From: Spirogloea muscicola | Lineage: Eukaryota; Streptophyta; Zygnematophyceae; Spirogloeales; Spirogloeaceae | Assembly: GCA_009602725.1 (NCBI GenBank) | Contig: WELB01000161.1 | Span: 275,304-309,662 of the forward strand | Direction of reading: 5' to 3' | Length of the DNA stretch: 34,359 nt | Position numbers and translations under genes: made by a program | The notes under the pieces: model-generated | Database searches by the model: none | The model's input: the letters and a program-made list of their open reading frames with translations, nothing else | Told to the model about the DNA's origin: nothing | Shown here: positions 5,171 through 33,200 of the stretch, piece after piece | Position numbering within the stretch: the stretch's first letter is position 1 | Layout of the letters: each line of letters starts with the position of its first letter

Positions 5171-5252
5171 TCCCGCTGCTCAGGGTGCCTCTGTTCCAGC
5201 TGCAAGTTACTCCGACCCGCGGCTGCTGGCTCGGTATTACATCAGACAGTGA
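5171..5252 (+). repeat. Decayed retrotransposon C-terminal tail (plus strand)
   Basis: The frame here reads ASVPAASYSDPRLLARYY and then a stop after IRQ. It matches the C-terminal PAASYSDLxxLTRGY motif of the retrotransposon group found throughout the window, with substitutions in the last residues. Only the end of the coding region is left, joined to unrelated GC-rich DNA at its 5' side. Confidence 0.55.
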
Positions 5253-5281
5253 GCTCGTCCCCGAGGGGCGAGGGCTGTGAA

Positions 5282-5895
5282 AAGAAGGAAGTGCTCGCCC
5301 ATTGAGAATAGGGGCTGGAACAACCAGCCCGAAAAAGAATGAACAGAGTACGAGAATGAACAAAGAACGAGAAGGGGTCCAGGGGAAGCGCTAAGTAACA
5401 GAAACAAAGCTGCTACGAGACACTCAGTAACCCCTGCTAAGCAGCCGCAGATCAGAGATGCTGGGCTCCTGGAAGTGGGTCCCCTGGCCAGAGCCAGAGG
5501 CAGCAGCGAGGGCTCTGCCGGCTGTGTGCTTTGGTTTCTTAGCGCTTCCTCTGGCTTCCTCTGGCCCCCTTATCGTTCTTTGTTCATTCTTTTTTGGGTT
5601 GGCTTGTCCAGCCCCTATCATCAATGGGCGAGCCCTTTCAATTCTGCCGGCACGAAGGTGCAGCGCCCGGGCCATGGACCTCTGCAGCGAGACGGCCAGG
5701 CGCATTCGATACACTTGCGCCAGCGACCCGGCTGCAGGGAAGTCAACCGGCTCCCCATGGAAGCGCCGGGCGATGGTGTGGCGGGCGAGCTGCGTGAGCA
5801 GCTCGAGCCACCGAGCGCCCAGCGCCCCATGTGTGTCGATGGCCAACGGGAAGAACTCGTCTTCCCGCGGATGATCCGCGTACTTCAGCGTGTGA
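5282..5895 (-). mobile_element. 5'-truncated retrotransposon, subfamily A (minus)
   Basis: Read on the minus strand, the frame starts inside the endonuclease-like domain (LKYADHPREDEFFPLAID, HGALGARWLELL), continues through GSLAQVYRMRLAVSLQRS, and ends SDLRLLSRGY with a stop at 5424. The 3' UTR then runs to about 5282 and holds the hairpin GGGCTGG...CCAGCCC at 5311-5331, the AATGGGCGAGCAC box and a pyrimidine-rich tail. The upstream end is cut off, as expected for 5' truncation of a LINE-like element. A second element (5522-5642) sits inside the coding part. Confidence 0.75.
5514..5650 (+). mobile_element. 121-bp nested retrotransposon tail with 8-bp target duplication
   Basis: The host copy is split here by a plus-strand tail of the same group, 5522-5642. 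It starts CTGTGTGCTTTGG, carries the GGGTTGG...CCAGCCC hairpin near 5595-5615 and ends at GGGCGAGCCCTTTCAAT. It is flanked by TCTGCCGG at 5514-5521 and 5643-5650. The uninterrupted sister copy near 24911 has this octamer once. Insert plus duplication is 129 nt, a multiple of three, so the host frame stays open across it. Confidence 0.8.
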
Positions 5896-6017
5896 AAAGC
5901 CAGCCCAGACAAATATGCACAAGGTCCAGAGAGCCGAGAGGCGCCAAAACCACACAGCTGTGCAAGAGACTGCAGCGATTTCTAGCAATTGGCCGCGCTT
6001 CCTTTTGATGGGGAGCT

Positions 6018-6170
6018 CAGTCACCCCGAGTCAGCAGCTGAATGTCGGAGTGACCTGCTTAACTTGCAGCTGGAACAAACAGAGGCGCCCGACGAGACCC
6101 AGGAGAAAGAAGAAAAAGAAGCAGCAGCCATACCGGGGCCTGCTCGCAAGTACACTGCATGCGCCTGGGA
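6018..6170 (-). mobile_element. Retrotransposon C-terminal fragment, subfamily C-like (minus)
   Basis: The minus-strand translation gives SQAHAVYLRAGPGMAAAS and, after a frame break, HSDIQLLTRGD and a stop at 6018-6020. This is the SDLxxLTRGY end with G-D for G-Y. It is a frame-broken relic; no hairpin follows it directly. Confidence 0.55.
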
Positions 6171-6309
6171 TCGGTAGCAGGATAAGCTACATAGGAATGA
6201 CGATGAAGCAGCAGCAAGGGCACCGCCAGCAGGCTTCACGCAGCACACTTCACAGCTGTTGCCCCCTTTATGGGAACAGTCTTTCGGCCTTTGGGAGAAG
6301 CTTCAATGT

Positions 6310-6740
6310 CAGTTTGGGCTGGCCTCTCACAGTTGTCGTGCCCTTTAAAAGAGCACTTTGTCCAGTAATGTCTTTCAGAGCTTGTTGGCCTCTTCAAATT
6401 TTGTCGGCTGGCTGTTAACAGCCCTGTGAGAGAGCCACTTTCTTCTATTCACCAGAAAGCTGGGCAAGCTCTAGTTGGTGGCAGAAGGGCTTCTTATCTG
6501 ACATCTAGTATTCATGCATCAAATAGTGACCCTTATATTTTGACCCGTGGTTACTGAGCGGGTCAATCTGCTGTAGGATATGTAGATTTTGAGATGTGTT
6601 TGCCTTTGTACTTGGCAATGTGGCCTATGTTCGTTTCAAATACGCGAATTATTTCTTCTGGCCACTTCCGACCTTGTCAATTTCCTACGGGCTGGCTGTT
6701 TACAGCCCGCGGCAACTTTGGGAGAGCCACTTTCTGTCAG
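6310..6740 (+). mobile_element. Retrotransposon 3' end, subfamily D, with hairpin tails
   Basis: Two earlier tail relics with the GGCTGG hairpin lie at about 6315-6345 and 6405-6440. The frame ALVGGRRASYLTSSIHAS...SDPYILTRGY follows, with its stop at 6555-6557. The 3' UTR continues with ACCCGTGGTTACTGAGCGGG and ends near 6690-6735 in GGGCTGGCTGTTTACAGCCC followed by GAGAGCCACTTTCT. The same tail and UTR recur at 24240-24420, and on the minus strand at 15165-15400, which defines subfamily D. Confidence 0.65.
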
Positions 6741-7285
6741 GGGCAACTTTGAAGGCAAGAGTCAACGAGCCCACACAAAGCAGGACATGGTACTCCACAG
6801 AATTTGTAGCCATTCGAATATAGCTACTCAGTCAACACTTATTCAGCAGCCGCCTGATGTAGCCCACAGAGCCTTAGCATTCTGGGCTGGTACAACTGGC
6901 GCCCCTTGCCCTCATTTGGCGACAGTTATGCAGCTATGTTTCATACAGATGCTCGTCCTTTTACTCTTCCTGTCCCTTTGAACAGGCCTTCATGATTTGC
7001 ACTTCAATTCTGGATAATGCAGCGACTCATCTGGCTGGCCCTTTCACAGCCTCATTCAGAAGATCGGCATCAAGCTGGCCATCACAGCCACCGCACTCTA
7101 TGTCTCCACTGCGGTCTAGCATTGGAAAGAATGAGAGGGTTATGAAGTAACTCAATCAAAGAATGTAGGGGCATCGGAGGTATGTCGTGCTGGTATGGCA
7201 GCATGCAATATAATACCTACGAAAGGATGGCCGAGTCACAAAACAGCTCGCACTGCGCTGAAGTGAGTCAATGTTCCGCTGTACA
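6741..7285. other. Unassigned stretch downstream of the large minus-strand gene
   Basis: No reading frame with a recognisable motif. It should contain the 3' UTR of the minus-strand gene ending at 7286. A degraded tail-like sequence (GGCTGGCCCTTTCACAGCC) lies at about 7030-7050, which suggests an old retrotransposon insertion. Confidence 0.4.
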
Positions 7286-12720: not shown

Positions 12721-12722
12721 AG

Positions 12723-13433: not shown

Positions 13434-13790
13434 CTAAGTACCCCGAGTCAGCAGCCGCAAGTCGGAGTGACTTGCAGCTGGAAAAGAGGCACTCCGACGA
13501 GATCCAGAAGCAGCAAGCATGGCACGGCCTGCCCGCAAGTTCACTGCGTGAGCCTGGGACCGTTGGAAGATATGGACAGCCGCGTACGGAACACCTGCGC
13601 AAGCGGCCCAGCGACGTTGAAGCCGGGCACCTTGCTGTCCCTGCCGATGTTCGATGGCCTACCGTGCAAGCCGCTGCAGAGAGAAGGCGCGCGGTGCGCA
13701 TGAAGTGAAAGCAAGGCCAATTCAAGCCAATACATTGTTCAGGCAAAACAAGCAGAAAGTGCGAAGACTGCAGTGCAAAGAATGTGCTAC
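13434..13790 (-). mobile_element. Retrotransposon C-terminal copy, subfamily C, joined to a subfamily E tail
   Basis: The minus-strand translation, with one frame break, gives GFNVAGPLAQVFRTRLSIS, QRSQAHAVNLRAGRAMLAAS and SASFPAASHSDLRLLTRG with a stop near 13434. At its 5' side (13684-13790) it is fused to the 3' UTR end of subfamily E (AATTCAAGCCAATACATTG when read on plus), as also seen at 29320 and 29581. The uninterrupted QRSQAHAV here shows that the subfamily C copies at 26118 and 28050 carry later insertions at that point. Confidence 0.65.
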
Positions 13791-13814
13791 ATGAAAAGCC
13801 CTATACTAGGAGGG

Positions 13815-15040
13815 CCGGAGGTGCCACAAGAGGGGGGAGCCGTGCCGACAGGGGCCATGTCGACTCGACCTGTAACACTATCTGGAGCTGCTAGAGGAGG
13901 GGGAGGAAGCAGCAGTGGAAGGAGGGATGGCGGGTTCGGGAAGGAGGGCCGGAGGTGTTACAGAGCGGGGGAGCCGTGCTGACGGGGGCCATGTTGACTC
14001 GACCTGCACCGCTTCTGGAGCTTGTCCGTTCTTTTGGGCTGCCTCTCACAGCCACCAGTCAATCTGGCCGCGTGTTCTCTTCTGGAGCCTTGTCCATTCC
14101 TTTGGGCTGGCCTCTCACAGCCACCAGTCAATTTGGAAGCGCTGTTTCTGTGCTGGAGCTGCTAGAGGAGTGGGAGGCAGCAGCAGTGGCAATGGAATGG
14201 CGGGTGGGGAAAGGAGGGGCGGAGGTGCCACAGAGTGGGGGGAGCCGTGCTGACGGGGGCCAAGTCGACTCGACCTGCACCGCTTCTGGAGCTGCTAGAG
14301 CTAGCTTTTCTGAAGGCGTCTACTGGCCCCTTCTCGTACTTTGTTCATTCATTTTAGGCTGGCTTTTCCCAGCCCCTATCCTCAATGGGCGAGCCTCTTC
14401 TCTGCTGGAGGAGTGGGGGGCAGCAGCAGTGGCAAGTGGGATGGCGAGTGGGGAAAGGAGGGCTGGGGGGGCCACAGACGAAGAACAGCGCTTCCAAATT
14501 GACTGGTGGCTGTGAGAGGCCAGCCCAAAAGATTGGACGGTCAAGCGGGGGCGGCCGTGCTGACGGGGGCCATGTCGACTCGACCTGCACCGCTTCTGGA
14601 GCTGCTAGAGGAGTGGGGGGCAGCAGCAGTGGCAAGTGGGATGGCAGGTGGGGTGCGTAGAAGATTGAGACGCCGATATCAAAAGAGCGGCTGTAAGAGG
14701 CCAGCCAGATGCATACAGGTGTTCATGACGAAAGGAGGGAGGGGGAAGAAGAGCGCTTCCAGAGTGACATCAGTGGCTGTGAGAAACCAGCCCAAAAGAA
14801 TGGACAAGGCCTGAAAGGGCCAGATGGCACAAGAAACAAGTTACTAAGCGCTAAGACGTCAGAAAGAAGAAAGCGCGGCCAGATTGACTGGTGGAAAGAA
14901 GACTCTCGGCAACCCCTAGTCAGCAAGTGCAGCAGGGGAACGGAGGGCTGGAGGTGCCATAGAGCGGGGAGCCGTGCTGACGGGGGCCATGTCGACTTGA
15001 TCTGCACCGCTTCTCAGCTGCTAGAAAGTAGCACATGCGG
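13815..15040. repeat. Reiterated GC-rich module interleaved with hairpin tails
   Basis: A module containing GCCGTGCTGACGGGGGCCAT recurs at about 13839, 13973, 14244, 14554 and 14971. Each is followed by a GTCGACTCGACCTGCACCGC-like stretch and usually by a GAGCTGCTAGAGGAG and GGCAGCAGCAGTGG block. H1 and H2 hairpin tails lie between them: H2 plus at about 14034 and 14102, H1 plus at 14354-14394, H2 minus at about 14490-14533 and 14750-14800. Open frames across the array differ in phase from copy to copy, so I do not call a protein. Confidence 0.75.
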
Positions 15041-15059
15041 AATCAAGCAGCTACGACAC

Positions 15060-15545
15060 ACTCAGTAACCCCTGAAAGGCGGGCCGGAGGTGCCACAGTG
15101 CTGCAGAAGGTCCAGCCATTGACTGCCGAATGCCCCGTGCATGTCTATCGCCAGCGCCCCAAAGGAAAAGATTCGTGTATCTGAAACAAACGAAGGCCAA
15201 ATGACCAAGCACGTCTGAAGACCTACATAACCTACCGCAGATTAAGCGGCTCAGTAACCACGGGACCATGAAGGTCGCTAAATCGAAGCCTAAATACTAG
15301 ATGGCAGATACGAAGCTCTTCTGCCACCAACTAGAGCTCGCCCAGCTTTCTGGTGCAAAGCATTAGCCTGAGCACGCTGCAAACAGGCCGAAACTCGTCG
15401 TCGCAAGAACGACAGATATGCAGCTGGCAAGCCCATCTCAGCCGGGAACACATCTGCATGTCGTGTGTAGCCAAGATGGGCAATATTCTGAAGGAGAGTG
15501 TGGAGACGAGGACAGAAACAGCCAAAGACGTCGACTGCAGCTGGC
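15060..15545 (-). mobile_element. Retrotransposon fragments, subfamily D-like (minus)
   Basis: Two overlapping relics. At 15060-15180 the minus strand reads ALAIDMHGAFGSQWLDLLQ and soon RGY with a stop at 15062-15064. At 15165-15400 it reads QKAGRALVGGRRASYLPSSI, then a broken SRGY-stop with the subfamily D 3' UTR. The first has the AID-HGAFG block of the endonuclease-like domain. The reading frame is broken several times. Confidence 0.6.
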
Positions 15546-15551
15546 AGGAGA

Positions 15552-15925: not shown

Positions 15926-16024
15926 TCGGCTGGGGCTGCGCTACTTGAGAGGATACCGACTCCCCCAACGCCACCCGCGCTGCTTCCAGCCTCGTTCCTT
16001 CGTCTGCCGCAACGTCAACGTCCG

Positions 16025-19000
16025 ATGACTCCTCCACAGCCTCTGCGGGCCGTGGCTGCTGCCCGCGTGCCCCTGCGACTCGCCTTCCTCGTGCTCCTTC
16101 TTCATGGGGCTCTGGCAGCAGGTTGCTATCCGCGCCTTCCTGTCGAGCATCACGGTGCAGCGCCACTTCTCTTGCCAGTTCGCTGTTGGATTACGTCCCT
16201 GTGACTGTCTGGTCTGACGGTACTTTGTCTAGGGTTGGGACGGCAACTGGCAATGTGAATGTACCGCATGCTCGCTTCTGAGCTGGCACGGTGTGCTTGC
16301 TCATTCCAGGCCCTGCAGACGCCAAGCCAAATGCAGAAGCCAAGCCGTCCACATTGAAGTAAGGAGATGTCCTCAGCTTTTTGCCTGCCTGCCTTCGCAC
16401 AGCACGCTGCCAGCCCTGGTGCTGATCGAGCTCGGCATCAGACTAGCCCCAGACTCTGCAACACTGGAGCTTGACAATAGACCTTAAGAGCAGGGCCGAC
16501 TTTTCAGCTCCTCAAAACGACACGATGTATACCCGTGACATGTACTCCGCAGGTTGAGCCTGACTCACATCGACGCACCTCATTCGCCTGTTCGGAGAGA
16601 GTGGCCCAGCAAAGAGGACGCATTCAGGTTCCAGCACCACAGCGACAAGGTCAGTTTGTGACTAGCTTGTGAATACCATTGCTGTCCATCCGCATCAGCG
16701 TGCATGTGATCTGGCATCCTTCTTTGCCTGCAGCCCATGCCGATAATTTTCAAGCCTTGCAATGCTGGACATGAGTGACCTCTCTGTGACGATCACAGAT
16801 ACTGTAGTATCAGCTGCTCGTTCTGTGAGAGCATTTGACTTGGCTGCTTATGCAGTTGACCATTTCCATTGTCGTGGGCTTTGTTGCCATGCATATTGCA
16901 TCACAACTGGATGCAGTGACTGGACCCTTCGCTTACTTAAGCTACTGCACATTCTGCAGGCAAGATCGGAGAGATTGTACCACCAGATCACACGCAAAGA
17001 GTCAAGAAGACATCCGGGAAAGAGGACGAAGACATTGAAGCAGCCAAAGCTTGTGCCAGGGGCGCACAGCACGACATCCACGGCATCATCCCATGAGGCA
17101 GTGGCTACGCAGGCAACTCAAGTCAGCTATCAAGCGTACAATGCAACAGTCCACTCAGGATACAGTCTTGGATTTGGGAGTTACTTCGCAGACTTCGGCC
17201 TTGGCGACCCAGCCCAACCACAAATCCTTACTGCAGACACTGGCAGCGACTTACTGTGGACTCAGGTCCAATCAGCACAATGACATTGCAGCAGCTTCAG
17301 TACTCATCCATACAGCATCGCTTGGCACACAGTTGCAACATGCAACTTGAGGAAAGATACAGGGATTCTGACAATGCTTGCATGATATCGCCCTGAAGCA
17401 ATTGCAACTGGTGGATCGCACATGCTTACTTGCTTCGCACTCTTCTGCTGCTACAGTGCTTGCCTTGCTCCAGCTGCTATTTTCAAAGCGGACCCGTCTT
17501 CGATCCGACTCAATCGTCTACCTTCTCTGTCATCAACTGCAACACTTACGCTTGCCTATATGCTGAGACCCAGTATGGGTATGACAATTGCTACTTCTCA
17601 GGAGGCACAGCCGACTGCGAGTACTCCTACGGGTGCACCTCTGTGAACTTGGAGACAGTGTGATTGTTGCGGTGATCGCGGCGTGGCCAATCTCTGCACC
17701 ACTCATCCTTGTGTTTTGTGAAATTGGATGTCTCCTAGTCTGATATATATCAGTCTATTGCAGGGGAGACTTCTAAAAGCGCCTGTGCTTACCCATGCAT
17801 CTCAAGAGCACGCAGGTATGCAGATGGATCCCTAACCTCAGGGAAATTGGCTACTGAGACGGTGTGGCTCACCACCACAACTGGCAGTAGTGTAGGCCTT
17901 TCGGGAGTGGCCTTTGGATGCGGTCACGACAATGTTGGTACCTTTGGCTATGCAGGGGGCCTCATTGGCCTTGGACGGGGGCCACTTTCCTTTGTCCAAC
18001 AGGTACTACTTTGCTTGTCCACTGTAAAGCATTGCTGAGTGCAAACAGAGCTTGTTAGCTTACATGGCCCTTGCTTTAGTACACATACAAACCAGATGTA
18101 AAAAAGTGAATGCATAACATTTGCTATAGTTGATCTCTGGATCTTTCATCCAAGGCCCAGACACCCTCGCCTACTTGTGTACAACATTGGAACTGGGCTT
18201 GAGCTTGCTATGTATTGTAATTGCTGGTTTCGATAAAGACGTTCGTTCTGCACAGCTGCACCAGTCTTTCTCAATCACGATGTGTATTTACTTATCATTG
18301 CAGCTGCAGACATATGACCACATATTTACCCTGTGCCTGCAAAGCTATGATGCGCCTTACCTGCCTCCGAGCGAGCTGGAATTCGGGTCGGCTGGAGTAC
18401 CCAGTACGGGCGTGACTTACACTCCGATCCTCAACAACCCCACCCAGGATGCAAACCTGGGATACACAACCTTCTACTATGTGCAGGTCAACAGTATACT
18501 GATAGGAGCAACCTCACTCAGCATCCCTGCGTCTGCTTTTACCATCGACGGCAGTGGTGGAGGAGGGACAATCTTTGACTCTGGAACAACCTTGACAATG
18601 TGAGCAGAGCAATTGCTTGCCAATCTATTGCCATGTTGGAGCAATATACACATTCTACATCTAGGACTTGCTGGCAAGTCATGAGCTCTGGCATTGCTGC
18701 TCGCGGGCTTTGCTAACATACGCTGTGTCTCAGGCTGGTGGTTGCTGCATACCAACCTGTCATTGACTATCTCAATGCCACCGTGCCTCTGCCCAAGTAA
18801 GTGTAGAGATATCTGTATTGCAGTCTCATACTTTCTATGGATCATATGCACTCAAACTTGGTCGTGACAAGTTCGTGCTTCTAATTGAAGAGCTTGCTGC
18901 TGCCGCATGATGCTGCCGCCGAATACTTTGTGCAGTTCTCAGCTGTTGCAGGTAGCACTGTCATAGTCAGGAAATACTTATTTGCCTGAGATTGCATATA

Positions 19001-19896
19001 TTGCAGGGCAAATATTAGTGGTCTTGGTCTTTGTTGGAACGTTACTGGAAATATGGCGAATCCAGACGATATAAATAATATGGGCTTCTTCCCTATTATG
19101 ACCTTCCGCATGTCAGGGCCATCTGACTACAGGCTCCCTCCTGCAAATTACATTGCTTTCGTATCCGATACAGTAGTCTGTGTGGTTCTTGAAATCTCAA
19201 ACATCAACATCATTGGCAACTTCGCACAGCAGAATTTCCTGATGGTGCACGACCTGAACCACACCAGGGTAATTGCTCANCTTGTTGGGGCAGGCCTTCG
19301 TCCTGCACTTTCAGACCTTGTTGATACATTGGGCTGGCCTCTCACAGCCATTGCCTTACATTCAAATAGCTGTCTCTCCTTTCTGGTCGTTGCGAACCGC
19401 CACCAACTTCGTCGTTCACCAAGTGGAAGAAACACCCCCGCCCCGCCCCCCGCCAAGTGGGGGCGGGGGGCGGGAGGCCGATCCTCTGCAGGAGTCCTCC
19501 TGCGGGAGGCAATAAGCCGGCCCGTTGGAAGGGGCCCCCGCCATTGCCCCGCAGAGGAGTCGGCACCCCCAGGGCTTACTCTTCATCCGGACTGGCTACT
19601 CCGGTTATCCGGCTGCGCCCGGCGGGCCGGGGAGCCGGAGCCTGCGGTAACCGCGGTTGGATAACCCCGCCGACCTTTCCGACGCCCGACGAAGCCCTCC
19701 GCCGGCAGCCGACGTCTGCCGTCGGGCGGGCTGACCGTTAGCTTCCCCCCCACCTCCTCCGCATCCTCCTCCCACAGTCCCTTCACCTCCCACAAAGGCG
19801 TCTCCTCCACCCTCTCATCTTCCTCCTCAATCGCCAGTACCCCCTCCCCCACTTCATCCACCTCCACCCAAGGCTTCCCCTCCACCTCCTGCATAA
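16025..19896 (+). pseudogene. Nepenthesin-like aspartic protease copy 1, broken
   Basis: Secretory A1-family peptidase with the exon layout of the intact copy at 30237. Exons seen: 16025-16219, 16310-16358, 16553-16649, 16960-17265, 17457-17632, 17816-18002, 18304-18599, 18734-18796, 18893-18934 (junction uncertain), 19007-19268, and a proline-rich end 19741-19896 with stop TAA. Both catalytic motifs remain: ADTGSDLLWTQ and IFDSGTTLT. Two faults break it. Exon 1 lacks one base near 16172 compared with copy 2, so the frame leaves after the signal peptide and stops at TGA (tccctgtga) near 16200. The exon that should encode MGWKPVNC is absent; 19269-19740 holds unrelated GC-rich DNA and an N at 19280. 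Sequencing or assembly error is an alternative to true decay. A TGTAA, the usual chlorophyte poly(A) signal, lies about 143 bp past the stop. Confidence 0.8.
19269..19740. other. Foreign segment in the last intron of protease copy 1
   Basis: After the donor at 19269 the sequence leaves homology with copy 2. It holds an N at 19280 and an H2-type hairpin (TTGGGCTGGCCTCTCACAGCC) at 19328-19348. A strongly GC-rich block follows, with further inverted repeats (for example CCCGCCCCCCGCC against GGGGGCGGGGGGCGGG at about 19444-19472). Homology resumes at 19741 within the proline-rich exon. It could be an insertion, a deletion-insertion or an assembly join at the N. Confidence 0.65.
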
Positions 19897-24239: not shown

Positions 24240-24420
24240 GCCTTGGCAGAAGGGCTCCGTTTCTGGCATCTAGTATTCATGCACCGATTAGTGACCTTTA
24301 TGTTTTGACCCGTGGTTATTGAGCGGGTCAATCTGCTGTAGGTTATGTAGATCTTTAGATGTGCTTGCCTCTGTACTTGGCCATTTGGCCTACATTTGTT
24401 TCTTATACACGGAATTCCCC
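24240..24420 (+). mobile_element. Retrotransposon 3' end, subfamily D
   Basis: The frame reads LASSIHAPISDLYVLTRGY with the stop near 24319. The 3' UTR then matches that at 6555 onward (GCGGGTCAATCTGCTGTAGG, later CTTGGCCATTTGGCC). The 5' end is truncated close to the foldback element and the 3' end is cut before its hairpin. Confidence 0.65.
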
Positions 24421-24454
24421 CTCGCCCAGTAGCTGCCGGAAAATTATCCCACTG

Positions 24455-24625
24455 ATTATTAGCGCTTCCCCTCGCCCACTTTTTGTACTTTCTTCCGTTT
24501 TTTTGGGCTGGCTTTTCCCAGCCCCTGTCCTCAATGGGCGAGGCCTTCTTTTAAGAGAAAGCGCGGCCAGATTGACTGGTGGCTGGGAAAGGCCAGCCCA
24601 AAAGAATGGACAAGGTCTGAGGGAG
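24455..24625. repeat. Two hairpin tails in opposite orientation
   Basis: A plus-strand H1 tail (AGCGCTTCCCC, then GGGCTGGCTTTTCCCAGCCC at 24505-24524, then AATGGGCGAGG) is followed at once by a minus-strand H2 tail (AGCGCGGCCAGATTGACTGG to GGCCAGCCCAAAAGAATGGA, 24560-24610). Neither has coding sequence attached, so both are strongly 5'-truncated insertions. Confidence 0.7.
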
Positions 24626-24699
24626 CTTGAGTGCGAATGACTAGGACTAAGACATCAGCCAGGGCCTCCTTTTAACACATCCGCTGTTCCTCCTTAAAG

Positions 24700-25425
24700 T
24701 CCACACGCAGGCTGTGCTATGGCTGCTGCATCTGGGTCTCGGCGGAGTGCCTCTTTTTTATTTTTTTTTGGGGAAGCGCTAAGAAAAACAAGCACACAGA
24801 GAAACAAAGCAGCTACGAATTACTCAGTAACCTCTCCTAAGCAGCCGCAGGTCGGATATGCTAGGCTCGTGGAAGTGGGTCCCCTGGCCAGAGCCAGAGG
24901 CAGCAGTGAGGGCTCTGCCGGCACGAAGGTGCAACGCCCGGGCCATAGACCTCTGCAGCGAGACGGCCAGGCGCATCCGATACACTTGCGCCAGCGACCC
25001 GGCTGCAGGAAAGTCTACCGGCTCCCCATGGAAGCGACGGGCGATGGTGTGGCGGGCGAGCTGGGTGAGCAGCTCGAGCCACTGAGCGCCCAGCGCCCCA
25101 AGGATGTCAATTGCCAACGGGAAGAACTCGTCTTCCCGCGGATGGTCTGCGTACTTCAGCTCTTTAGCCCGAGCAGCGCAGGCGACCGCATACCCAGCCT
25201 TAGTGGCACATTGGGCTGGGTGTGAGCGGTCGTAGGCATCTTTGATCACCACGTCCAGGAGAAGACGTGGCCCGCCGGCCTCTTTTCTTCTTTTCCTGCA
25301 GCGATTTACTCGGACTTGATGTTCCTCACTCGCGGGTACTGAGCTTCACATCTGCATCGTCTCGTGTCTACTTGTGTAGTTCTTTTCCCAGAACCTTTTT
25401 GTGCTTTTGGATACTGTCCATCCTT
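24700..25425 (+). mobile_element. Retrotransposon 3' end, subfamily C, split by a nested copy
   Basis: Left part: AMAAASGSRRSASF up to 24757. Right part: PAAIYSDLMFLTRGY and a stop at 25340-25342, then the subfamily C 3' UTR to about 25425. Between them lies a 520-bp minus-strand subfamily A copy. Joining left and right restores the order seen at 26300-26406. The 3' UTR is cut before its hairpin by the next element. Confidence 0.7.
24749..25286 (-). mobile_element. Nested retrotransposon copy, subfamily A, with poly(A)-like 3' end
   Basis: The minus-strand frame starts at GGPRLLLDVVIKDAYDRSHP, runs through KELKYADHPREDEFFPLAID and GSLAQVYRMRLAVSLQRS, and ends SDLRLLRRGY with a stop at 24824. 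The short 3' UTR ends ...TTAGCGCTTCCCC followed by a run of A with one T (plus strand 24758-24769). Flanking GCCTCTTTT at 24749-24757 and 25278-25286 is a candidate 9-bp target duplication. Unlike the other A copies it lacks the hairpin segment, which suggests an earlier polyadenylated transcript end. Confidence 0.75.
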
Positions 25426-25432
25426 CTGGGGC

Positions 25433-26105
25433 CCCGCCGAGCGGACCTCGTTGCCATCCCGCCCGGAGGAGGTCGGCGTATTATCGCAGATGGCCCCTTC
25501 GTAGCTGCTAAGCGCTCTTTCAGACCTTGTCAGACCTTGTCCATTCCTTTGGGCTGGCCTTTCCCAGGCACCAGTCAGTCTGGCCGCGCTTTCTCTTTGG
25601 CCCTTCCAACTTTTGTCATTTCTTTTCGGGCTGGCTTTTCACAGCCCTTGCCCCCGTGGGGAGTGCCACTTCTTCGCAGATGTGGTGACAGCAGATTGCA
25701 TCGACTCCGCCAACCCTGCACAGTCGGCGACGCTTGCCGGGCACGCGGTCACTTTGGCGGCTCCGAGTAAGGAGCGCAAGTGTGCGGACCACCCTCCCGG
25801 CGATGTCTTCGCAGCCCTTGCCATTGACGTTCACGGGGCCTTTGGCACTGGCTGGTTGGATCTCCTCCAGCGGCTTGCCCGGCAGGCCACCGAGCGACGG
25901 CCGGGTTCGCCAGGCTTCCAGGAGCCTAGCATCTCCGACCTGCGGCTGCTTAGCAGGGGTTACTGAGTGAGACTTGTAGCTGCTTTGTTTCTTTGTGTGC
26001 TGTTGTTGTTTTTCTTAGCGCTTCCCCTGGCCCCCTTCTCGTGCTCTGTTCATTCTTTTCTGGGCTGGCTTTTCCAGCCCCTATCCTCAATGGGCGAGCA
26101 CTTTC
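25433..26105 (+). mobile_element. Retrotransposon copy, subfamily A, with endonuclease-like core
   Basis: The coding part begins RADLVAIPPGGGRRIIAD and is interrupted at 25493-25673 by another element. It then continues DVVTADCIDSANPAQS, KERKCADHPPGD, AIDVHGAFGTGWLDLL and SISDLRLLSRGY with a stop at 25964-25966. The 3' UTR (TAGCGCTTCCCCTGG, H1 hairpin near 26064-26082, AATGGGCGAGCAC, pyrimidine tail) ends near 26105. The spacing R-x-D-L ... D-V ... K matches restriction-like endonuclease domains of site-specific non-LTR elements; catalysis is inferred, not shown. Confidence 0.75.
25484..25682 (+). mobile_element. 181-bp nested insertion with 9-bp target duplication
   Basis: TCGCAGATG occurs at 25484-25492 and 25674-25682. 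Removing 25493-25673 and one copy restores RRIIADVVTAD, as in the minus-strand copy at 28050-28975. The insert contains an H2 hairpin (GGGCTGGCCTTTCCCAGGC, near 25551) and then an H3 hairpin (GGGCTGGCTTTTCACAGCCC, near 25629) ending GGGGAGTGCCACTTCT. It therefore seems to be one tail inserted into another. Confidence 0.8.
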
Positions 26106-26117
26106 TTCTTCTTTAAT

Positions 26118-26535
26118 GCTGCCGGCTCCCTCGCTCAGGTATTTCGGATGAGGCTGGCGGTCTCGCTCCAGCGCTCTACGATCGGCCATGGAGCGCTTCC
26201 CCTGGCCCCCTTCTCGTACTCTGTTCATTCTCTTTTGGGCTGGCTTTTCCAGCCCCTATCCTCAATGGGCGAGCACTTTCTCTTTGGCTCATGCAGTCAA
26301 CGCGCGCGCTGGCCGCAATATGGCTGCTGCCTCCGGGTCTCGACAGAGTGCCTCTTTCCCTGCAGCGAGCTACTCTGACCTGCTGTCGTTCAATCGCGGG
26401 TACTGAGCTGCCCTCTGCATCGTCTTGTGTTTTGTAATCTAGTCCTTTTCTGGCTTCTCTTCCTTTGGCTTTGGACATTGTCCATTCGTTTTGGACTGGC
26501 TTTGCCAGCCCCTTTTCTCTATGCGCGAGTACTTT
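26118..26535 (+). mobile_element. Retrotransposon copy, subfamily C, with an inserted H1 tail
   Basis: The frame AAGSLAQVFRMRLAVSLQRS breaks at 26176. An H1-type tail follows (26177-26285, hairpin near 26239-26258). The C-terminal part resumes as AHAVNARAGRNMAAASGS and SASFPAASYSDLLSFNRGY with a stop at 26404-26406. The 3' UTR runs to about 26535 with its own hairpin GGACTGGCTTTGCCAGCCCC. An uninterrupted QRSQAHAV is seen at 13434-13790. Confidence 0.7.
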
Positions 26536-26539
26536 CTCG

Positions 26540-26775
26540 CCGACGTTGTCACGACTGACTGCTTTGTTTCTGCTGACTGCTGGCTTCCGTCATGGCAACG
26601 TCTTCCGCTGGCTAGCTACTCAGACTTGCATCTCCTGACTAGAGGTTACTGAACGTTCCCTAATTGGTGTCTTAGTCCTAGTCCTAGTCTGCACTCCCTC
26701 CTTCAGACCTTGTCCATTCCTTTGGGCTGGCCTTTCCCAGCCACCAGTCAATCTGGCCGCGCTTCCTTTCTTTGT
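26540..26775 (+). mobile_element. Retrotransposon 3' end, subfamily B
   Basis: Short coding remnant ending SYSDLHLLTRGY with a stop at 26650-26652. The B-type 3' UTR (TTAGTCCTAGTCC, ACCTTGTCCATTCC) and H2 hairpin (GGGCTGGCCTTTCCCAGCC near 26722) follow, ending CTGGCCGCGCTTCCTTT. It is 5'-truncated and directly abuts the next B copy. Confidence 0.7.
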
Positions 26776-27285
26776 TTCCAGCAGCGCCAAACGCTCGTCG
26801 GAGAAGGCGGGCTACGCAGTGCCAAGCGGCGGGCGCGAAGGAACGGAAATACTCGGACCACCCGGTGGGAGACGAGTTTGTTCCACTAGCAGTCGACGTG
26901 CACGGAGCCTTCGGCAAAATATGGCTCGGCTTGCTTCACCGCCTTGGGCAGCAGGGCGAGCAGCCCGGCTTCAACGTCGCCGGGTCCCTCGCTCAAGTCC
27001 TCCGAATGCGTTTGGCCATCTCGATGCAGCGGACCCTTGCCTTCGCGGTTCACTTGCGCGCAGGCCGAGCTTTAGCGGCGGCCTCCGGCTTCCGTCAGGG
27101 CGACGTCTTTCCGTCAGCTAGCTACTCAGACTTGCATCTCCTGACTAGAGGTTACTAAGCGTTTCCTGGCTGATATCTTAGTCCTAGTCCTTCGCACTCC
27201 GGCTTCTTCAGACCTTGTCCATTCGTTTGGGCTGGCCTTTCCCAGCCACCAGTTAATCTGGCCGCGCTTTCTTTTCTCTCTTGGG
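26776..27285 (+). mobile_element. Retrotransposon copy, subfamily B, 5'-truncated
   Basis: Open frame with KERKYSDHPVGDEFVPLAVD, VHGAFGKIWLGLL, GFNVAGSLAQVLRMRLAIS and SYSDLHLLTRGY, stop at 27156-27158. The 3' UTR resembles that of the preceding copy and ends with the H2 hairpin near 27229-27247, then CTGGCCGCGCTTTCTTTTCTC. It covers the C-terminal half of the endonuclease-like domain. Confidence 0.75.
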
Positions 27286-27299
27286 GCTGGCTTTGCCCC

Positions 27300-27935
27300 C
27301 AAACAGACCGGCGGGCCACGTCTCCTGGACGTGGTGACCACCGACGCTTACGACCGCTCGCACCCAGCCCAATGTGCCACCAAGGTTGGGTATGCTGTCG
27401 CCTGCGCCGCTCGGGCTAAAGAGCTCAAGTACGCCGACCATCCGCGGGAAGACGAGTTCTTCCCGCTGGCGATTGACACGCATGGGGCGTTGGGCGCTTG
27501 GTGGCTCGAGTTGCTCATCCAGCTCGCCCGCCACGCCATCGCCCGTCGCTTCCATGGGGAGCCGGTGGACTTTCCTGCAGCCGGGTCGCTAGCGCAGGTG
27601 TACCGGATGCGCGTGGCCGTCTCGCTGAAGCGGTCAATGTCCCGCGCGCTGCATCTGCGGGCCGGCAAAGCCCTCGCTGCTGCCTCTGGCTCTGGCCAGG
27701 GAACCCACTTCCAGGAGCCTAGCGTCTCCGACCTGAGGCTGCTTAGCAGGGGTTACTGAGTGATCAGTAGCTGCTTTGTCTCTTTGTGTGCTTGTTTTTC
27801 TTAGCTCTTCCCTGGCCCCCTCCTCGTCCTCTGTTGATTCTTTTTTGGGCTGGCCTTTCGAGCCCCTATCATTGGGCGAGCGCTTTCTTTGCCAGCCCGT
27901 CTTCTCTATGGGCGAGCAATTTCTCCGGGCAAAAG
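27300..27935 (+). mobile_element. Retrotransposon copy, subfamily A, 5'-truncated
   Basis: Frame with GGPRLLDVVTTDAYDRSHP, KELKYADHPREDEFFPLAID, THGALGAWWLELL, GSLAQVYRMRVAVSLKRS and SDLRLLSRGY, stop at 27757-27759. It is uninterrupted and close in sequence to the minus copies at 5282 and 24749. The 3' UTR has an altered hairpin (GGGCTGGCCTTTCGAGCCCC) and a second, partly duplicated tail (GCCAGCCC, ATGGGCGAGCAATTTC) to about 27935. Confidence 0.75.
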
Positions 27936-28049
27936 AAGTGGCACTCCCAATGTGGGCAAGGGCTGTGGAAAGCCAGCCAGAAAGAATTGACAAAGGTTCG
28001 AGGGGGCCAAATTAGGGGGCTACGAAGGGGGCGAGAAGAAAAGAAAGTG
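27936..28049 (-). repeat. H3-type hairpin tail (minus)
   Basis: Read on minus it gives TTTCTGGCTGGCTTTCCACA, then GCCCTTGCCCACATTGGGAG and TGCCACTTCTT. This is the H3 tail seen at 25626-25673, without coding sequence. Confidence 0.6.
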
Positions 28050-28975
28050 ACCGCCCATAGAGAAGAGGGGCTGGCAAAGCCAACCCAAAAAGAATGGACA
28101 ATGTTCAAAGCCAAAGAAAGAAGTGCCGAAAAAGGACTACACCACAAAGTGCAAGACGGTGCAGAGGAAGATGCAGATGGATGCTCAGTATCAACGTGTG
28201 AGCAACAGCAGATCAGATTAACTCGGAGCAGGAAAAGCGGCACTCTGCCGAGACCCGGAAGCAGCACCCATAGCACGGCCAGCGCGCGTGTGGACCGCAT
28301 GAGCCGAAGAAGGTGCTCGCCCATTGAGAAGAGGGGCTGGCAAAGCCAACCCAAAAAGAATGGACAATGGACAAAGAGCGCTGTAGCGAGACCGCCAGCC
28401 TCATCCGGAAGACCTGCGCGAGGGAGCCGGCAGCATTGAAGCCTGGCGAACCCTGCCGCCGCTTGACGGCCTCCCGGGCAAGTCGCTGGAGGAGATCAAC
28501 CAGCCACTGCCAAAGGCCCCGTGTACGTCAATGGCCAGTGCCGCGAAGGCATCGCCTGGAGGGTGGTCAGAGTACTTGCGCTCCTTACTCCGAGCCGCCA
28601 AAGCGACCGCGTGCCCGACGGGCGTCGCCGACTTTGCGGGGTTGGCTGAAAATCAACGCAATCTGCAGTCACCACATCAGCGATGATACGCGGACCTCCT
28701 CTGGGCGGGATGGCAACGAGGTCCGCGTGGCGGGTGTGAAGCTTTCCGTCGGCGCCCCGCAGGATGGGCATGATCGTGGAGTTCTCCACTGCCACCTTGT
28801 AGCCGGCCTCCAGGAACACACCCTGCAGGGCGTCTCGCAGGAGGTCGTGTGAACCTGTCCGCTCGGCCCCGTGCGCGCAGCGGAGCATGTGGCCCGTCAG
28901 CGCCGCAGGGTCATCGTGGCGGGCACTGCACTCGCACTGTTGGACCCACGATGAGGCAGGGAGGGAGGAGGCCAA
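28050..28975 (-). mobile_element. Longest retrotransposon copy: Cys/His cluster plus endonuclease-like domain, subfamily C
   Basis: The minus-strand frame from 28975 gives CECSARH, GHMLRCAHGAERTGSHDLL, YKVAVENSTIMPILRG, RHADLVAIPPRGGPRIIAD and DVVTADCVDF. A frame break follows, then SKERKYSDHPPGDAFAALAI, DVHGAFGSGWL and GSLAQVFRMRLAVSLQRS. A hairpin tail interrupts at 28306-28375; the frame resumes AHAVHTRAGRAMGAASGSRQ and decays before the hairpin near 28060-28080. The Cys/His cluster followed by R-x-D-L...D...K is the C-terminal arrangement of non-LTR elements with restriction-like endonucleases. No reverse-transcriptase motif lies upstream. Confidence 0.7.
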
Positions 28976-29037
28976 GGAGCCGGGGGCCTGAAGAAGCTAG
29001 GGCAGCACAGGGGGAGGATGGGCAAAAGGATATTTTG

Positions 29038-29310
29038 AAAGTGCTCGCCCATTGAGGATAGGGGCTGGAAAAGCCAGCCCAAAAAAGAATGAACAGAGTA
29101 CGAGAAGGGGGCCTGGGGAAGCGCTGAGGAAAACAAGCGCACAAAGAAACAAAGCAGCTACGAAGCACGCACGAGGAAAGGAGAAAGTGCTCGCCCATTG
29201 AGAATAGGGGCTGGAACAACCAGCCCGAAAAAGAATGAACAGAGTACGAGAAGTGGGCCAGGGGAAGCGCTAAGAAACAGAAACAAAGCAGCTACGAGAC
29301 ACTCAGTAAG
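29038..29310 (-). mobile_element. Two consecutive H1 tails (minus), no coding sequence
   Basis: Two 3'-UTR-only copies of subfamily A lie head to tail: 29038-29165 and 29183-29310. Each starts on plus with GAAAGTGCTCGCCCATTGAG, then GGGGCTGG...CCAGCCC, and runs to AAACAAAGCAGCTACGA; the second includes the ACTCAGTAA that encodes the stop. The GA-rich bases before each correspond to a 3' pyrimidine tail on the element strand. Confidence 0.75.
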
Positions 29311-29319
29311 AAGAGAGAA

Positions 29320-29781
29320 GGCGCGCGGGGCGCATGAATTGAAAGGGAGGCCAATTCAAGCCAATACATTGTTCAGGCAGAGTCGAGTGCAGACTAAACA
29401 ATGCTACATAATACGGAGACCTAATCTAAGGTACCTAAGATGACATTAGTACCCACGGGTGAGCACAAACAAATCTGACAAGCTAACTTGGGGAGCTGGA
29501 GCGCCGCCACGAAAGCCGGAGGCCTGACTTAGAGCGCGCCCTGCACGTTGATGAAGAGCCAAAGAAGAAGAGAGAGAGAAGGCGCGCGGGGCGCATGAAT
29601 TGAAAGGGAGGCCAATTCAAGCCAATACATTGTTCAGGCAGAGTCGAGTGCAGACTAAACAATGCTACATAATACGGAGACCTAATCTAAGGTACCTAAG
29701 ATGACATTAGTACCCACGGGTGAGCACAAACAAATCTGACAAGCTAACTTGGGGAGCTGGAGCGCCGCCACGAAAGCCGGA
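29320..29781 (-). mobile_element. Two identical 201-bp copies of the subfamily E 3' end
   Basis: 29320-29520 and 29581-29781 look identical by eye. On minus each encodes VSLSDLFVLTRGY and a stop, then a 3' UTR that includes AATGTATTGGCTTGAATTGG and ends CGCGCGCCTTCTC. They are direct repeats 261 bp apart with a 60-bp spacer. A diverged copy, inverted relative to these, lies in an intron of protease copy 2 (30633-30847), and the UTR end is also at 13684-13790. Confidence 0.8.
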
Positions 29782-29792
29782 AGAAGAAGAAG

Positions 29793-29952
29793 AAAGTGCT
29801 CGCCCATTGAGAATAGGGGCTGGAACAACCAGCCCGAAAAAGAATGAACAGAGTACGAGAAGGGGGCCAGGGGAAGCGCTAAGTAACAGAACTCAGTAAC
29901 CCCTGCTAAGCAGCCGCAGATCAGAGATGCTGGGCTCCTGGAAGTGGGTCCA
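29793..29952 (-). mobile_element. Subfamily A 3' end with the last coding residues
   Basis: The H1 tail on minus (hairpin at 29816-29837 on plus) is preceded by the last codons, EPSISDLRLLSRGY, before the stop. The copy is truncated at about 29952. On plus, GAAGAAGAAGAAAGTGCTCG marks a (CTT)n tail at its 3' end. It lies just upstream of the 5' flank shared by the protease genes. Confidence 0.7.
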
Positions 29953-30236
29953 CGAGGAAAGGATAGCACGCAGGAAAGCGGCAGACTCTTCGAATAGTCG
30001 GCGATGGTGGTGATTGGCTAGCGCAGAAGAAGGACCCGGCGGGTGCGCCGGGCGGAAAGGCGCCTACCCGGGCTCGTGCCGCAGGCGCCACCCTCCCCTT
30101 CCCCTTCCTCCTTTCCAGCGCTCGCTCGTCCACAGGAGTTCGGGGCGCCGACCCCCGCTGCGCGCCTCGCTGCGCCGCGGCCCGGCCAGGCCCGCCGCTT
30201 CAAGCCACCGGCCTTCCTCCGTCTGCCGAACGTCCG

Positions 30237-33200
30237 ATGACCCCTCCACAGCCCCTGCACGCAGTGGCTGCCGCCCGCGCACCCCTGCGGCTCGCCTTCG
30301 TTGTGCTCCTTCTCCATGGGGCTCTGGCAGCAGGTTGCTGTCCGCCCCTTCCTGTCGAGCGCCACGGTGCAGCACTACTTCTCTCTGCCAGTCCGCCGTC
30401 GGCCTATGTCCCTGTGACTCTCTGGCTTGACGGTACTTTGTCTAGGCTTGGGATGGCAATCGGCTATGTGGATGTACCACTGGCTCGCTGCACATGCTCG
30501 CCTCTTGAGCTGGCACGGTGTGCTTGCTCATTGCAGGCCTTGCAGACGCCGGGCCAAGCGCAGAAGCGAAGCCATCCACGTTAAAGTAAGGAGGTGTCCT
30601 CAGCTTCTTGCCTGCCTGCTTCTGCTTTTGTGGGTACTAATGTCACCCTGTTACCTTAGGCCCCTTAGTTTAGGTCTCCGTATTATGTGGCCTTGTTTAG
30701 TCTGCACTGGTCTCTGCCTGTACAATGTATTGGCTTGAGTTGGCCTCCCTTTCAAACCCCCTTAGCCAGCTCATTACCCAGTTAACAGGACACTGTTAGA
30801 ATTGGCCTCCCAATCAATGTCATGCACACCGCGCGCCTTCTCTCTTTATGCACAGCTGCCAGCCCTGATACTGATCGTACTTAGCATTCGAGTAGTCCCA
30901 GACTCTGCAGTACTGAAGCTTGACAAGACCTTGAGAGTAGGGCGTTTTGTTTTCGCATCCTCATCACGAGAGGACGTAGATTTACCCGTGACATGTACAT
31001 TGCAGGTTGAGCCTGACTCACATTGATGCACCTCATTCACCTATCCGGAGAGAGTGGCCCAGCAAAGAGCATGCATTCAGGTTTCAGCACCACAGCGACA
31101 AGGTCAGTGTTCATGACTAGCATGTGACTACAATGCTGTCTATTAACATCAGTGTACATGTGATTTGACATCCTTGCCTGCTTGCAGCCCATGCTAATTG
31201 TTCATCAGGCCTTGCAATGCTGGACATGAGTGACCTCCCTGCAGTGTACATGTACTGTAGTGTCAGCTGCTCGCTCTGTGAGAGCATTTGAGTTGGCTGC
31301 TATGCAGGTGCCATTCTGATTGTCGTGCAATTTGTCGCAATACAGATTGCATCACAACTGGATGCAATGACTGGACCCTTCGCTTACTGAGCTACTGCAC
31401 ATTTGCAGGCAAGATCCGAGAAATTGTACCACCAGATCACTGGCAAAGAGCCAAAAAGACATCCGGGAAAGAGGACACATCCAATGAGGAAGCCAAAGCT
31501 TGTGCCAGGGGTGCACAGCACGACATCCACAGCATCATCCAATGAGGCAGCGGCTGCGCAGGCAACTCAACTTAGCTATCAAGCTTACAATACAACAGTC
31601 CACTCAGGATACAGTGTTGGATTTGGGAGTTACTTCGCAGACTTCGGCCTTGGCAACCCAGCCCAACCACAAATCCTTATCGCAGACACTGGCAGCGACT
31701 TACTGTGGACTCAGGTCCAATCAGCACATTGACATTGCAGCAGGCTTCAGTACTTATCCATACAGCATCGCTTTGCACACGGTTGCAACATGCAACTTGA
31801 GAAAAGATACAGTGGACCTGACAATGCTTGCATCGTATCGCCCTGAAGCAACCCAGTACAATCAGTGGTGTGCACGTGCTTACTTGCTTTGCACTCTTCT
31901 GCTGCTGCAGTGCTTGCCCTGCTCTAGCTGCTATTTACAAAGCGGACCCATCTTCAACCCCACTCAGTCGTCAACCTTCTCTGTCATCAACTGCAACACT
32001 CTCGCTTGCCTATATGTTGAGACCCAATATGAGTATGACAATTGCTACTTCTCAGGAGGCACAGCCGACTGCGAGTACTCCTACGGGTACAACTCTGTGA
32101 ACTTGGAGATACAGTGTCTTGTACATTGTTGCGGTGATCTTGGCGTGGCCAATCTCTGCCTCATTCAACTTTTTTGTAATCTTGGAAGACTCCTAGTCTG
32201 AGATACATCAATCTATTGCAGGGGAGCTGTTACCAGCGCCTGTGTTTACTTGTGCATCTCAAGAGTATGCAGGTATGGAGATGGATCCCAAACCTCAGGG
32301 CAATTGGCTACTGAGACGCTGTGGCTAACCACCACGATTGGCACTAGTGTAGGTCTTTTGGGAGTGGCCTTTGGGTGCGGTCACGACAATGGTGGTACTT
32401 TTGGCTATGCAGGGGGCCTCATTGGCCTTGGACGGGGGCCACTTTCCTTTGTCCAACAGGTATTTCGTTGCATGTCCATTGTGAAGCATTGCTTACTGCA
32501 AAGAGAGCAGGTTAAAGTACATGGCCCTAGCTTTATTACACGTGCAAAGTAGATATGCAAAAGTGAATGCATACCACTTGCTGTACTTAATCTGGATGTC
32601 TTATCCAAGCCACAGACACCCTCGCCTACTTGTGTACGATGTTGAGACTGGGCTTGGGCTTGCTTTCTTTCCGTGATCGCTGATTTTGTACAAGGACGTT
32701 CATTCTGAACAGCTGCACCGTTCTTTATCAATGTGAATCTACTCATCGTTGCAGCTGCAGACATATGACCACGTGTTTACCCTGTGCCTGCAAAGCTATG
32801 ATGCGCCTTACCTGCCTCCGAGCGAGCTGGAATTTGGGTCGGCTGGAGTACCCAGTACGGGCGTGACTTACACTCCGATCCTCAACAATCCCATCCAGGA
32901 TGCAAATCTTGGATACACAGTTTTCTACTATGTGCAGGTCAACAGTATACTGTTTGGAACAACCTCACTCAGCATCCCTGCATCTGCTTTTACCATCGAC
33001 GGCAGTGGTGGAGGAGGGACATTCTTTGACTCTGGAACAACCTTGACAATGTAAGCAGTGCAACTGCTTGCAATCAGTTGCCATGTTGGAGCAACATGCA
33101 CATTCTACATCTAGGACTTGCTGGCAGTAATTAGCTCTGGCGTTGCTGCTCGCGGGCTTTGCTAATATACTCAGTGTCTCAGGCTGGTGAGTGCTGCATA

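What the first reader, a model, noticed from the sequence alone, without database searches (positions are those of the whole stretch)
5171..30847. A group of non-LTR-type retrotransposons defined by a shared C-terminal peptide SDLxxL(T/S)RGY-stop
At least fifteen fragments end in variants of one peptide: SDLRLLSRGY, SDLHLLTRGY, SDLLSFNRGY, SDLMFLTRGY, SDPYILTRGY, SDLYVLTRGY, SDLFVLTRGY. It follows an AID-HGAFG block and, in longer copies, a Cys/His cluster and R-x-D-L...DVVTAD...K core like restriction-like endonucleases of non-LTR elements. Five subfamilies can be separated by 3' UTR. I know of no described element with this exact C-terminus, but I could not search.
Basis: partly seen in the sequence, partly recalled or inferred. 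Interest (0 to 1): 0.75.

Follow-up and report, generated by a model that had tools for sequence, protein, structure and literature searches.

The report
Debris of R2-like jumping genes
The repeated peptide marks the broken-off tail ends of a large, recently active family of copy-and-paste jumping genes related to R2 elements, in the genome of a photosynthetic organism, where the family seems to make up a sizeable share of the DNA.

Summary
Observation confirmed. The window holds 14 copies of a C-terminal peptide S-D-x-x-x-L-type-R-G-[Y/T]-stop within 41 fragments, 7.2 kb, of one repeat family; reversed sequence gives none. The fragments are 3'-end pieces; none reaches the reverse transcriptase (RT). 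Elsewhere in the same genome open copies exist: one ORF of roughly 1,100-1,360 aa with 1-2 zinc-finger motifs, RT, a Cys/His knuckle, a PD-(D/E)xK-like nuclease and the SDLxxLTRGY end. Sequence profile and predicted fold point to R2-type, restriction-like-endonuclease LINEs (RT: R2 E=6e-11, LINE-1 E=7e-4; C-terminal domain: the seven best PDB folds are all R2 proteins, Z 13-15.8, next 7.5). Young copies are 5'-truncated, with 5-13 bp target-site duplications in 14 of 21, so they move by target-primed reverse transcription, with no RNA-gene target found. I found no counterpart in a green-lineage genome in the papers searched; Repbase/Dfam could not be searched. Likely a new lineage of a known kind.

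The parts
5278..5522 (-). 3'-end piece of lineage B (SDLRLLSRGY* at 5427-5456) with 3'UTR and tail
   Evidence: 92% to B_L048
5554..5639 (+). lineage B tail piece
   Evidence: 86%
5643..5889 (-). C-terminal coding piece of lineage B
6450..6654 (+). 3'-end piece of lineage G, ends SDPYILTRGY* at 6525-6554
   Evidence: 87% to G_L058
13434..13684 (-). 3'-end piece, nearest to A (70%), ends SDLRLLTRGT*
13678..13745 (-). lineage H tail piece
   Evidence: 94%
14022..14861 (.). cluster of six short tail pieces (F-, B- and D-like), both strands
15045..15158 (-). two short pieces, B- and C-like
15159..15550 (-). C-terminal piece of lineage G
   Evidence: 86%
24244..24415 (+). 3'-end piece of lineage G, ends SDLYVLTRGY* at 24290-24319
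24459..24755 (.). three short pieces (B tail +, F tail -, A piece +)
24800..25281 (-). 3'-end piece of lineage B, ends SDLRLLRRGY* at 24827-24856
   Evidence: 93%
25289..25347 (+). terminal piece ending SDLMFLTRGY* (25310-25339), nearest to C
25433..25592 (+). short pieces of A (25433-25492) and F (25533-25592)
25671..25918 (+). endonuclease-domain piece of lineage A
   Evidence: 86%
25915..26110 (+). terminal piece of lineage B (SDLRLLSRGY* 25934-25963) plus 3'UTR/tail
26111..26537 (+). lineage A 3'-end piece (SDLLSFNRGY* 26374-26403) interrupted by a lineage B tail at 26192-26285
26572..26764 (+). lineage F 3'-end piece (SDLHLLTRGY* 26620-26649)
26772..27270 (+). lineage F 3'-end piece (SDLHLLTRGY* 27126-27155)
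27295..27924 (+). lineage B 3'-end piece (SDLRLLSRGY* 27727-27756) in a 204-aa open frame
28041..28988 (-). lineage A C-terminal domain (knuckle + endonuclease), frame-shifted and interrupted by another A tail at 28307-28376
29037..29309 (-). two lineage B tail pieces
29312..29781 (-). two lineage H pieces (SDLFVLTRGY* 29449-29478 and 29710-29739), near-identical, 261-bp period
29787..29951 (-). lineage B terminal piece (SDLRLLSRGY* 29896-29925)
30630..30845 (+). two lineage H tail pieces

Best explanation
The peptide is the C-terminus of the single protein of a family of R2-superfamily (restriction-like-endonuclease) non-LTR retrotransposons. Most likely mechanism: the protein binds its own RNA near the 3' end, nicks genomic DNA with its C-terminal nuclease, and primes reverse transcription from the nick; reverse transcription usually stops early, which leaves short 3'-end pieces such as those in the window. 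Shown here: domain order, RT, R2-like predicted fold of the C-terminal domain, constant 3' end, 5' truncation, target-site duplications, near-identical young copies. Inferred: enzymatic activity, RNA recognition through the tail, and any role of the SDLxxLTRGY end (a conserved peptide beyond the nuclease fold, perhaps a docking motif). Insertion shows no RNA-gene target and often lands in or beside older copies of the family, which builds mosaics.
For: Open frames with zinc-finger motif, RT, CxC..H..C knuckle and nuclease-like domain, all ending in the motif: L017, L048, L049 (ends TCGY, not TRGY), L050, L051, L053, L058. Pfam RVT_1 in 6 of 6 ORFs scanned. PDB profile search: R2 E=5.6e-11, LINE-1 ORF2 E=7.3e-4. 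AF2 model of the C-terminal 255 aa (pLDDT 75) has the order helix, strands, helix, strand; 7 of 7 Foldseek hits at E<=0.001 are R2 proteins; VIA Z 13.0-15.8, next best Prp8 7.5. Residues H786, E807, D827, D842, K872, Y876 are invariant in 7 of 7, in line with the H, D/E and KX2KY markers described in PMC5678591 (passages). TSD of 5-13 bp in 14 of 21 resolved insertions, 6% expected, 0 of 200 shuffles as many. In one search, 40 of the 48 matches listed for one 3' end are >=99% identical (40 of 3,122 candidates were scored; the query itself is one of them). pN/pS 0.20-0.62 in 21 of 21 pairs (uncorrected).
Against: The C-terminal profile has no sequence match in the PDB at E<=10, so the nuclease assignment rests on fold and motif. 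The knuckle spacing is CX1CX11-12HX3C, not the published CX2-3CX7-8HX4C. The full-length AF2 model is poor (pLDDT 54) and was not used. The 3' tail hairpin shows no compensatory change (0 of 6 pairs). Same-orientation bias of neighbours is absent (17 same, 13 opposite, 23 of 53 flank sides without family DNA within 60 bases). 7 of 21 insertions show no TSD of 5 or more.
Confidence: 0.93

Rival explanations
1. The elements belong to Dualen/RandI, the green-algal LINEs said to carry both an AP-type and a restriction-like endonuclease.
For: Green-plastid host (chlorophyll a/b-binding genes); Dualen is reported in Chlamydomonas and relatives (PMC8226300 passages) and has an RLE (PMC4640811).
Against: No AP endonuclease or RNase H domain in any of 6 ORFs at E<=1; three other lineage B copies lose their >=99% match to L048 78-93 bases before the start codon (only 39-101-base matches of 74-90% follow upstream), which leaves no room for an upstream endonuclease domain.
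Confidence: 0.04
2. The elements are a branch of Utopia/NeSL, which has the same ZF-RT-ZF-RLE layout.
For: Same domain order with 1-2 N-terminal zinc-finger motifs (layout from PMC4640811).
Against: No U2, rRNA, tRNA or other Rfam match in 65 kb around 20 young insertions; 7 U2-like hits in the genome, 2 fetched, with the nearest family piece 77 and 103 bases away, not at a junction. No Repbase NeSL sequences were at hand for a tree, so shared ancestry with lost targeting is not excluded.
Confidence: 0.25
3. The window pieces are mainly non-autonomous SINE-like repeats that share only the tail with a LINE.
For: Most pieces are short; tails are alike across several lineages.
Against: Pieces extend variable distances into coding sequence, with breakpoints at different positions, and the longer ones include the coding C-terminus; that is 5' truncation, not a fixed SINE head. 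The shortest tail-only pieces cannot be told apart.
Confidence: 0.03
4. The peptide is conserved because of an RNA or DNA constraint on the 3' end, not as protein.
For: It lies next to the RNA tail.
Against: In the last 12 codons synonymous sites are near saturation while the peptide stays, e.g. L017/L050: 11 synonymous and 2 non-synonymous differences; TCN/AGY serine and CGN/AGR arginine swaps occur between lineages.
Confidence: 0.05

Closest known systems
R2 retrotransposons (Bombyx R2Bm, Taeniopygia R2Tg, Platysternon R2)
   Same: Single ORF, N-terminal zinc fingers, RT, Cys/His knuckle, nuclease with KX2KY (features from PMC5678591); best PDB match for RT by sequence and for the C-terminal domain by fold.
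   Different: No 28S rDNA or other RNA-gene target found; different knuckle spacing; the aligned range in three vertebrate R2 chains runs to their last residue (1121, 1169, 1390) at model residues 233-235, while the model goes on 20-22 residues to the SDLxxLTRGY end; high-copy and dispersed.
Utopia / NeSL clade
   Same: ZF(1-3)-RT-ZF-RLE in one protein (PMC4640811).
   Different: No U2 association found; the paper lists Amoebozoa, SAR and Opisthokonta only.
BLAG, non-site-specific R2-like elements of the cockroach (PMC7650587)
   Same: R2-like elements that insert at dispersed sites (passages).
   Different: Animal host; not compared by sequence here.
Dualen/RandI
   Same: LINEs with an RLE, reported in green algae.
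   Different: Has an APE as well (PMC4640811); none here.
Zepp and Zepp-like L1 LINEs of green algae (PMC8226300)
   Same: Nested, 5'-truncated copies that build clusters.
   Different: L1 type (its AP endonuclease is recalled); RT here is closer to R2 than to LINE-1.

Membership tests
RLE-type (R2-superfamily) LINEs | Reverse transcriptase of non-LTR type, nearest to R2 | tested here: met
   RVT_1 in 6 of 6 ORFs; R2 E=5.6e-11 against LINE-1 7.3e-4 in PDB profile search. No tree with Repbase references.
RLE-type (R2-superfamily) LINEs | Single ORF with N-terminal zinc finger(s) | tested here: met
   1-2 CxxC..H..C/H motifs before the RT in 7 of 7 open copies (pattern); Pfam C2H2 matches only below cut-off and in 2 of 6; short 5'UTR, no room for a second ORF in lineage B.
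RLE-type (R2-superfamily) LINEs | CCHC knuckle CX2-3CX7-8HX4C before the nuclease | tested here: inconclusive
   Two Cys, His, Cys invariant in 7 of 7 at the right place, but spacing CX1CX11-12HX3C.
RLE-type (R2-superfamily) LINEs | C-terminal PD-(D/E)xK-like nuclease fold with H, D/E and KX2KY | tested here: met
   Fold. Residues: (second K of KX2KY is H in L058). Activity not tested.
RLE-type (R2-superfamily) LINEs | Target-primed reverse transcription: constant 3' end, 5' truncation, TSDs | tested here: met
R2 clade proper | Insertion at the 28S rDNA site | tested here: not met
   No rRNA match around 20 young insertions.
Utopia | U2 snRNA gene target | tested here: not met
   No U2 match around 20 young insertions. 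Utopia families with weak targeting exist, so ancestry is left open.
Utopia / NeSL clade | RT phylogenetic position | not testable with these tools
   No Repbase references available.
Dualen/RandI | AP endonuclease in addition to RLE | tested here: not met
   No APE at E<=1 in 6 ORFs; no room upstream in lineage B.
L1/Zepp | AP endonuclease (recalled), L1-type RT | tested here: not met

The most novel reading that the evidence does not exclude
A separate clade of R2-superfamily retrotransposons, on a par with R2, NeSL, R4 or HERO, living in a green-lineage genome, that gave up an RNA-gene target, grew to thousands of copies covering perhaps a quarter of the genome, and is marked by an extra C-terminal peptide S-D-L-x-x-L-[T/S]-R-G-Y beyond the nuclease that works as a docking or targeting signal.
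Probability: 0.35. Interest if true: 0.62.

Novelty: new variant of a known kind. Interest (0 to 1): 0.5.

Why it matters
Elements with only a restriction-like endonuclease are best known from animals, oomycetes and protists, and mostly aim at repeated RNA genes. A recently active, high-copy, non-targeted branch in a photosynthetic host would help date the loss of target specificity and offers open-frame proteins for comparison with R2, which is being developed for gene insertion (abstracts listed). The conserved C-terminal peptide is a concrete, testable handle, and the family would otherwise clutter gene annotation of such genomes with 'hypothetical protein' fragments ending in SDLxxLTRGY.

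Tried and rejected
Full-length AF2 model (A3, 984 aa): pLDDT 54, set aside. C-terminal profile against PDB sequences: nothing at E<=10. Single-sequence PDB search of the L011 ORF: only three weak YuiC matches, E 1.5-1.8. Viral contigs: no relative. Viral fold library: one hit at E<=0.001, an uncharacterised phage protein, then loose matches, some PD-(D/E)xK. RNA structure of the tail, nine tails: A, B and the L051 type fold better than shuffles (z -3.0 to -3.7), G z -2.3, the other five -1.4 to +0.2; consensus folding of 18 sequences predicts one 6-pair hairpin with 0 compensatory pairs. The tail set was picked by a pattern that asks for part of that hairpin, and I gave only 18 of the 26 sequences, so I do not claim the structure as shown. 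Head-to-tail orientation bias: not found. Pherophorin family as a marker of the host lineage: nothing rang, controls included, so uninformative. The LHC comparison lists molecule names without organisms; it shows a chlorophyll a/b type plastid but does not settle the host's class. Papers: no paper holds all of 'restriction-like endonuclease', 'non-LTR retrotransposon' and 'green alga'; others (15 of 26 listed; 15 of 263 listed, chance matches; 9 of 10 listed) gave no RLE-only LINE of a green-lineage genome by title or abstract start.

Counts to read with care: candidate counts (4,570; 19,028; 1,333) are rough and only 150 of each were scored. L048 and L069 are the same sequence with flanks on two contigs, so the assembly holds some duplicate copies. 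Rows dropped: of 28 insertions 7 were left out of the TSD test (locus edge or N in the 5' flank). The random control is 10 contig midpoints, 1 all N. In the BLASTN library lineage H is only its last 300 bases.
Full report
What was claimed.

A pattern search finds 14 such ends in the window, each followed by a stop; 13 end RGY and one RGT. Against eight real copies from the same genome, 41 fragments (7,211 bases) tile 5278-30845; the reversed window and reversed controls give 0 bases. The fragments are 3'-end pieces: with seven protein cores as queries no match begins before residue 719 of 980-989, while the RT active site is at 420-426. The window has no Rfam match at gathering score.

Full copies exist. 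The window is part of a 153-Mb, 471-contig assembly. Searches with two C-terminal queries and with the RT returned 150 scored matches each, out of 4,570, 19,028 and 1,333 candidates. Open copies were fetched and read: L017 (1,130-aa open frame), L048 (1,299 aa from its MGSAA start), L049 (1,358), L051 (1,329), L050 (1,089 from a similar Met), L053 (1,110, cut by the locus edge) and L058 (1,137-aa frame). They share 1-2 zinc-finger motifs, an RT with [Y/F]ADD, a knuckle, a nuclease-like domain and the terminal peptide. L058 is the most distant, 44% identical to L048 over the 984-residue core. By best match the window's SDLRLLSRGY pieces belong to the L048 lineage (B), SDLHLLTRGY to L053 (F), SDLYVLTRGY/SDPYILTRGY to L058 (G), SDLFVLTRGY to L057 (H, only its 3' end readable; the rest is N), and the 28041-28988 piece to L017 (A).

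What the protein is. Pfam finds RVT_1 in 6 of 6 ORFs scanned and no AP endonuclease or RNase H at E<=1. A profile of five cores finds R2 proteins first in the PDB (E=5.6e-11), LINE-1 ORF2 only at 7e-4. The C-terminal 255 residues, modelled at pLDDT 75, match R2 proteins in the seven best places (VIA Z 13.0-15.8) with the spliceosomal Prp8 next at 7.5; kinship of R2 and Prp8 is described in PMC5678591 (passages). That paper's markers of LINE endonucleases - a His at the first helix, D/E residues and KX2KY - are invariant here apart from the second Lys in L058. The profile has no sequence match there. The knuckle is spaced CX1CX11-12HX3C, unlike the published CX2-3CX7-8HX4C; this is a real difference.

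The terminal peptide. Three vertebrate R2 chains end at the place aligned to model residues 233-235; the peptide lies beyond, in a stretch of low model confidence. Across seven cores the last 12 columns are at the 84th percentile of conservation with 6 invariant positions, after 12 columns with none. Synonymous sites in it are near saturation, so selection acts on the protein. In the loci read, 103 ends of this type make 23 distinct peptides; SDLLLLTRGY (35) and SDLRLLSRGY (23) lead, partly because I fetched young copies of the first. Its function is not known; a docking peptide is my guess.

How it moves. The 28 young copies read share one 3' end and most start at different points; the median length of the 21 with a readable 5' flank is 314 bases. 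Fourteen of those 21 have target-site duplications of 5-13 bases, against 6% expected, and none of 200 shuffles reach 14. Three further lineage B copies lose their >=99% match to L048 78-93 bases before the start codon, so the 5'UTR is short and an intact element measures about 4.1 kb (length inferred). In one search, 40 of 48 matches listed for one 3' end are at least 99% identical, so activity is recent, though some may be duplicate haplotypes. In 65 kb around 20 young insertions there is no Rfam match, so no rRNA, tRNA or U2 target. Family DNA covers 52-55% of the 50 bases on either side of young insertions, 21-27% beyond 1 kb, and 25.8% (6,450 of 25,014 readable bases) in ten contig midpoints; 13 of 21 insertions have family DNA within 60 bases on both sides. 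This may mean preference for older copies or simply survival outside genes. The control is small and patchy (5 of 9 readable midpoints have any), so the genome share of about a quarter is rough. Neighbours show no orientation bias (17 same, 13 opposite).

The host. Chlorophyll a/b-binding genes (68 matches, exon by exon) and close matches of one to chlorophyll a/b-binding proteins in the PDB (104 sequences at E<=1e-20) show a green plastid. The class is open.

What is known. PMC4640811 (parts 1-2 of 5 and passages) lists five clades of RLE-only LINEs plus Dualen, and Utopia in three supergroups, Archaeplastida not among them. PMC8226300 (passages) names L1 and Dualen LINEs in Chlamydomonas relatives, and PMC3747384 (passages) tables L1, RandI and RTEX for green algae. 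PMC7650587 (passages) describes non-site-specific R2-like elements in a cockroach. I saw no RLE-only LINE of a green-lineage genome in the listings (titles and abstract starts; capped lists). Repbase and Dfam were not available, so a catalogued match is possible.

Verdict. The finding is right in kind. It is a new lineage or variant within a known kind of element: membership in R2 proper and in Utopia fails on target, in Dualen on the AP endonuclease, and placement among RLE clades is left open for want of references.

Noticed in passing
window 16017-19126 and 30229-33785: A stretch with a gene resembling an aspartic protease (recalled from its sequence, not scanned) is present twice, about 14.2 kb apart: three blocks of 104-156 bases at 83-89% and near-identical open frames further on; the densest cluster of retrotransposon pieces lies between the copies.
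   Followed up: no
window 29308-29781: A 261-bp unit holding the lineage H 3' end is tandemly repeated 1.8 times at 99%; a local duplication or a double insertion.
   Followed up: no
L001, L002 (G000:C33:906849-910331, C170:275321-278803): The best RVT_1 matches of the genome are six places with the same top score (open frames of 1,172-1,237 aa); the flank of the two read holds a gag-like frame with a CCHC knuckle, so probably a young LTR retrotransposon.
   Followed up: no
L048 (G000:C338) and L069 (G000:C20:1131300-1132300): Identical over 1,001 bases including flank on two contigs: duplicate haplotypes or a recent segmental duplication, which inflates copy counts.
   Followed up: no
L012, L014, L015, L016, L057: Several element copies run into N stretches (2,425-6,679 N per locus) upstream of their 3' end, assembly gaps or withheld stretches.
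   Followed up: no
window 33786-34359: Proline-rich repeat frame (PPPKASPPPP) running off the window end; TRF periods 24-84.
   Followed up: no
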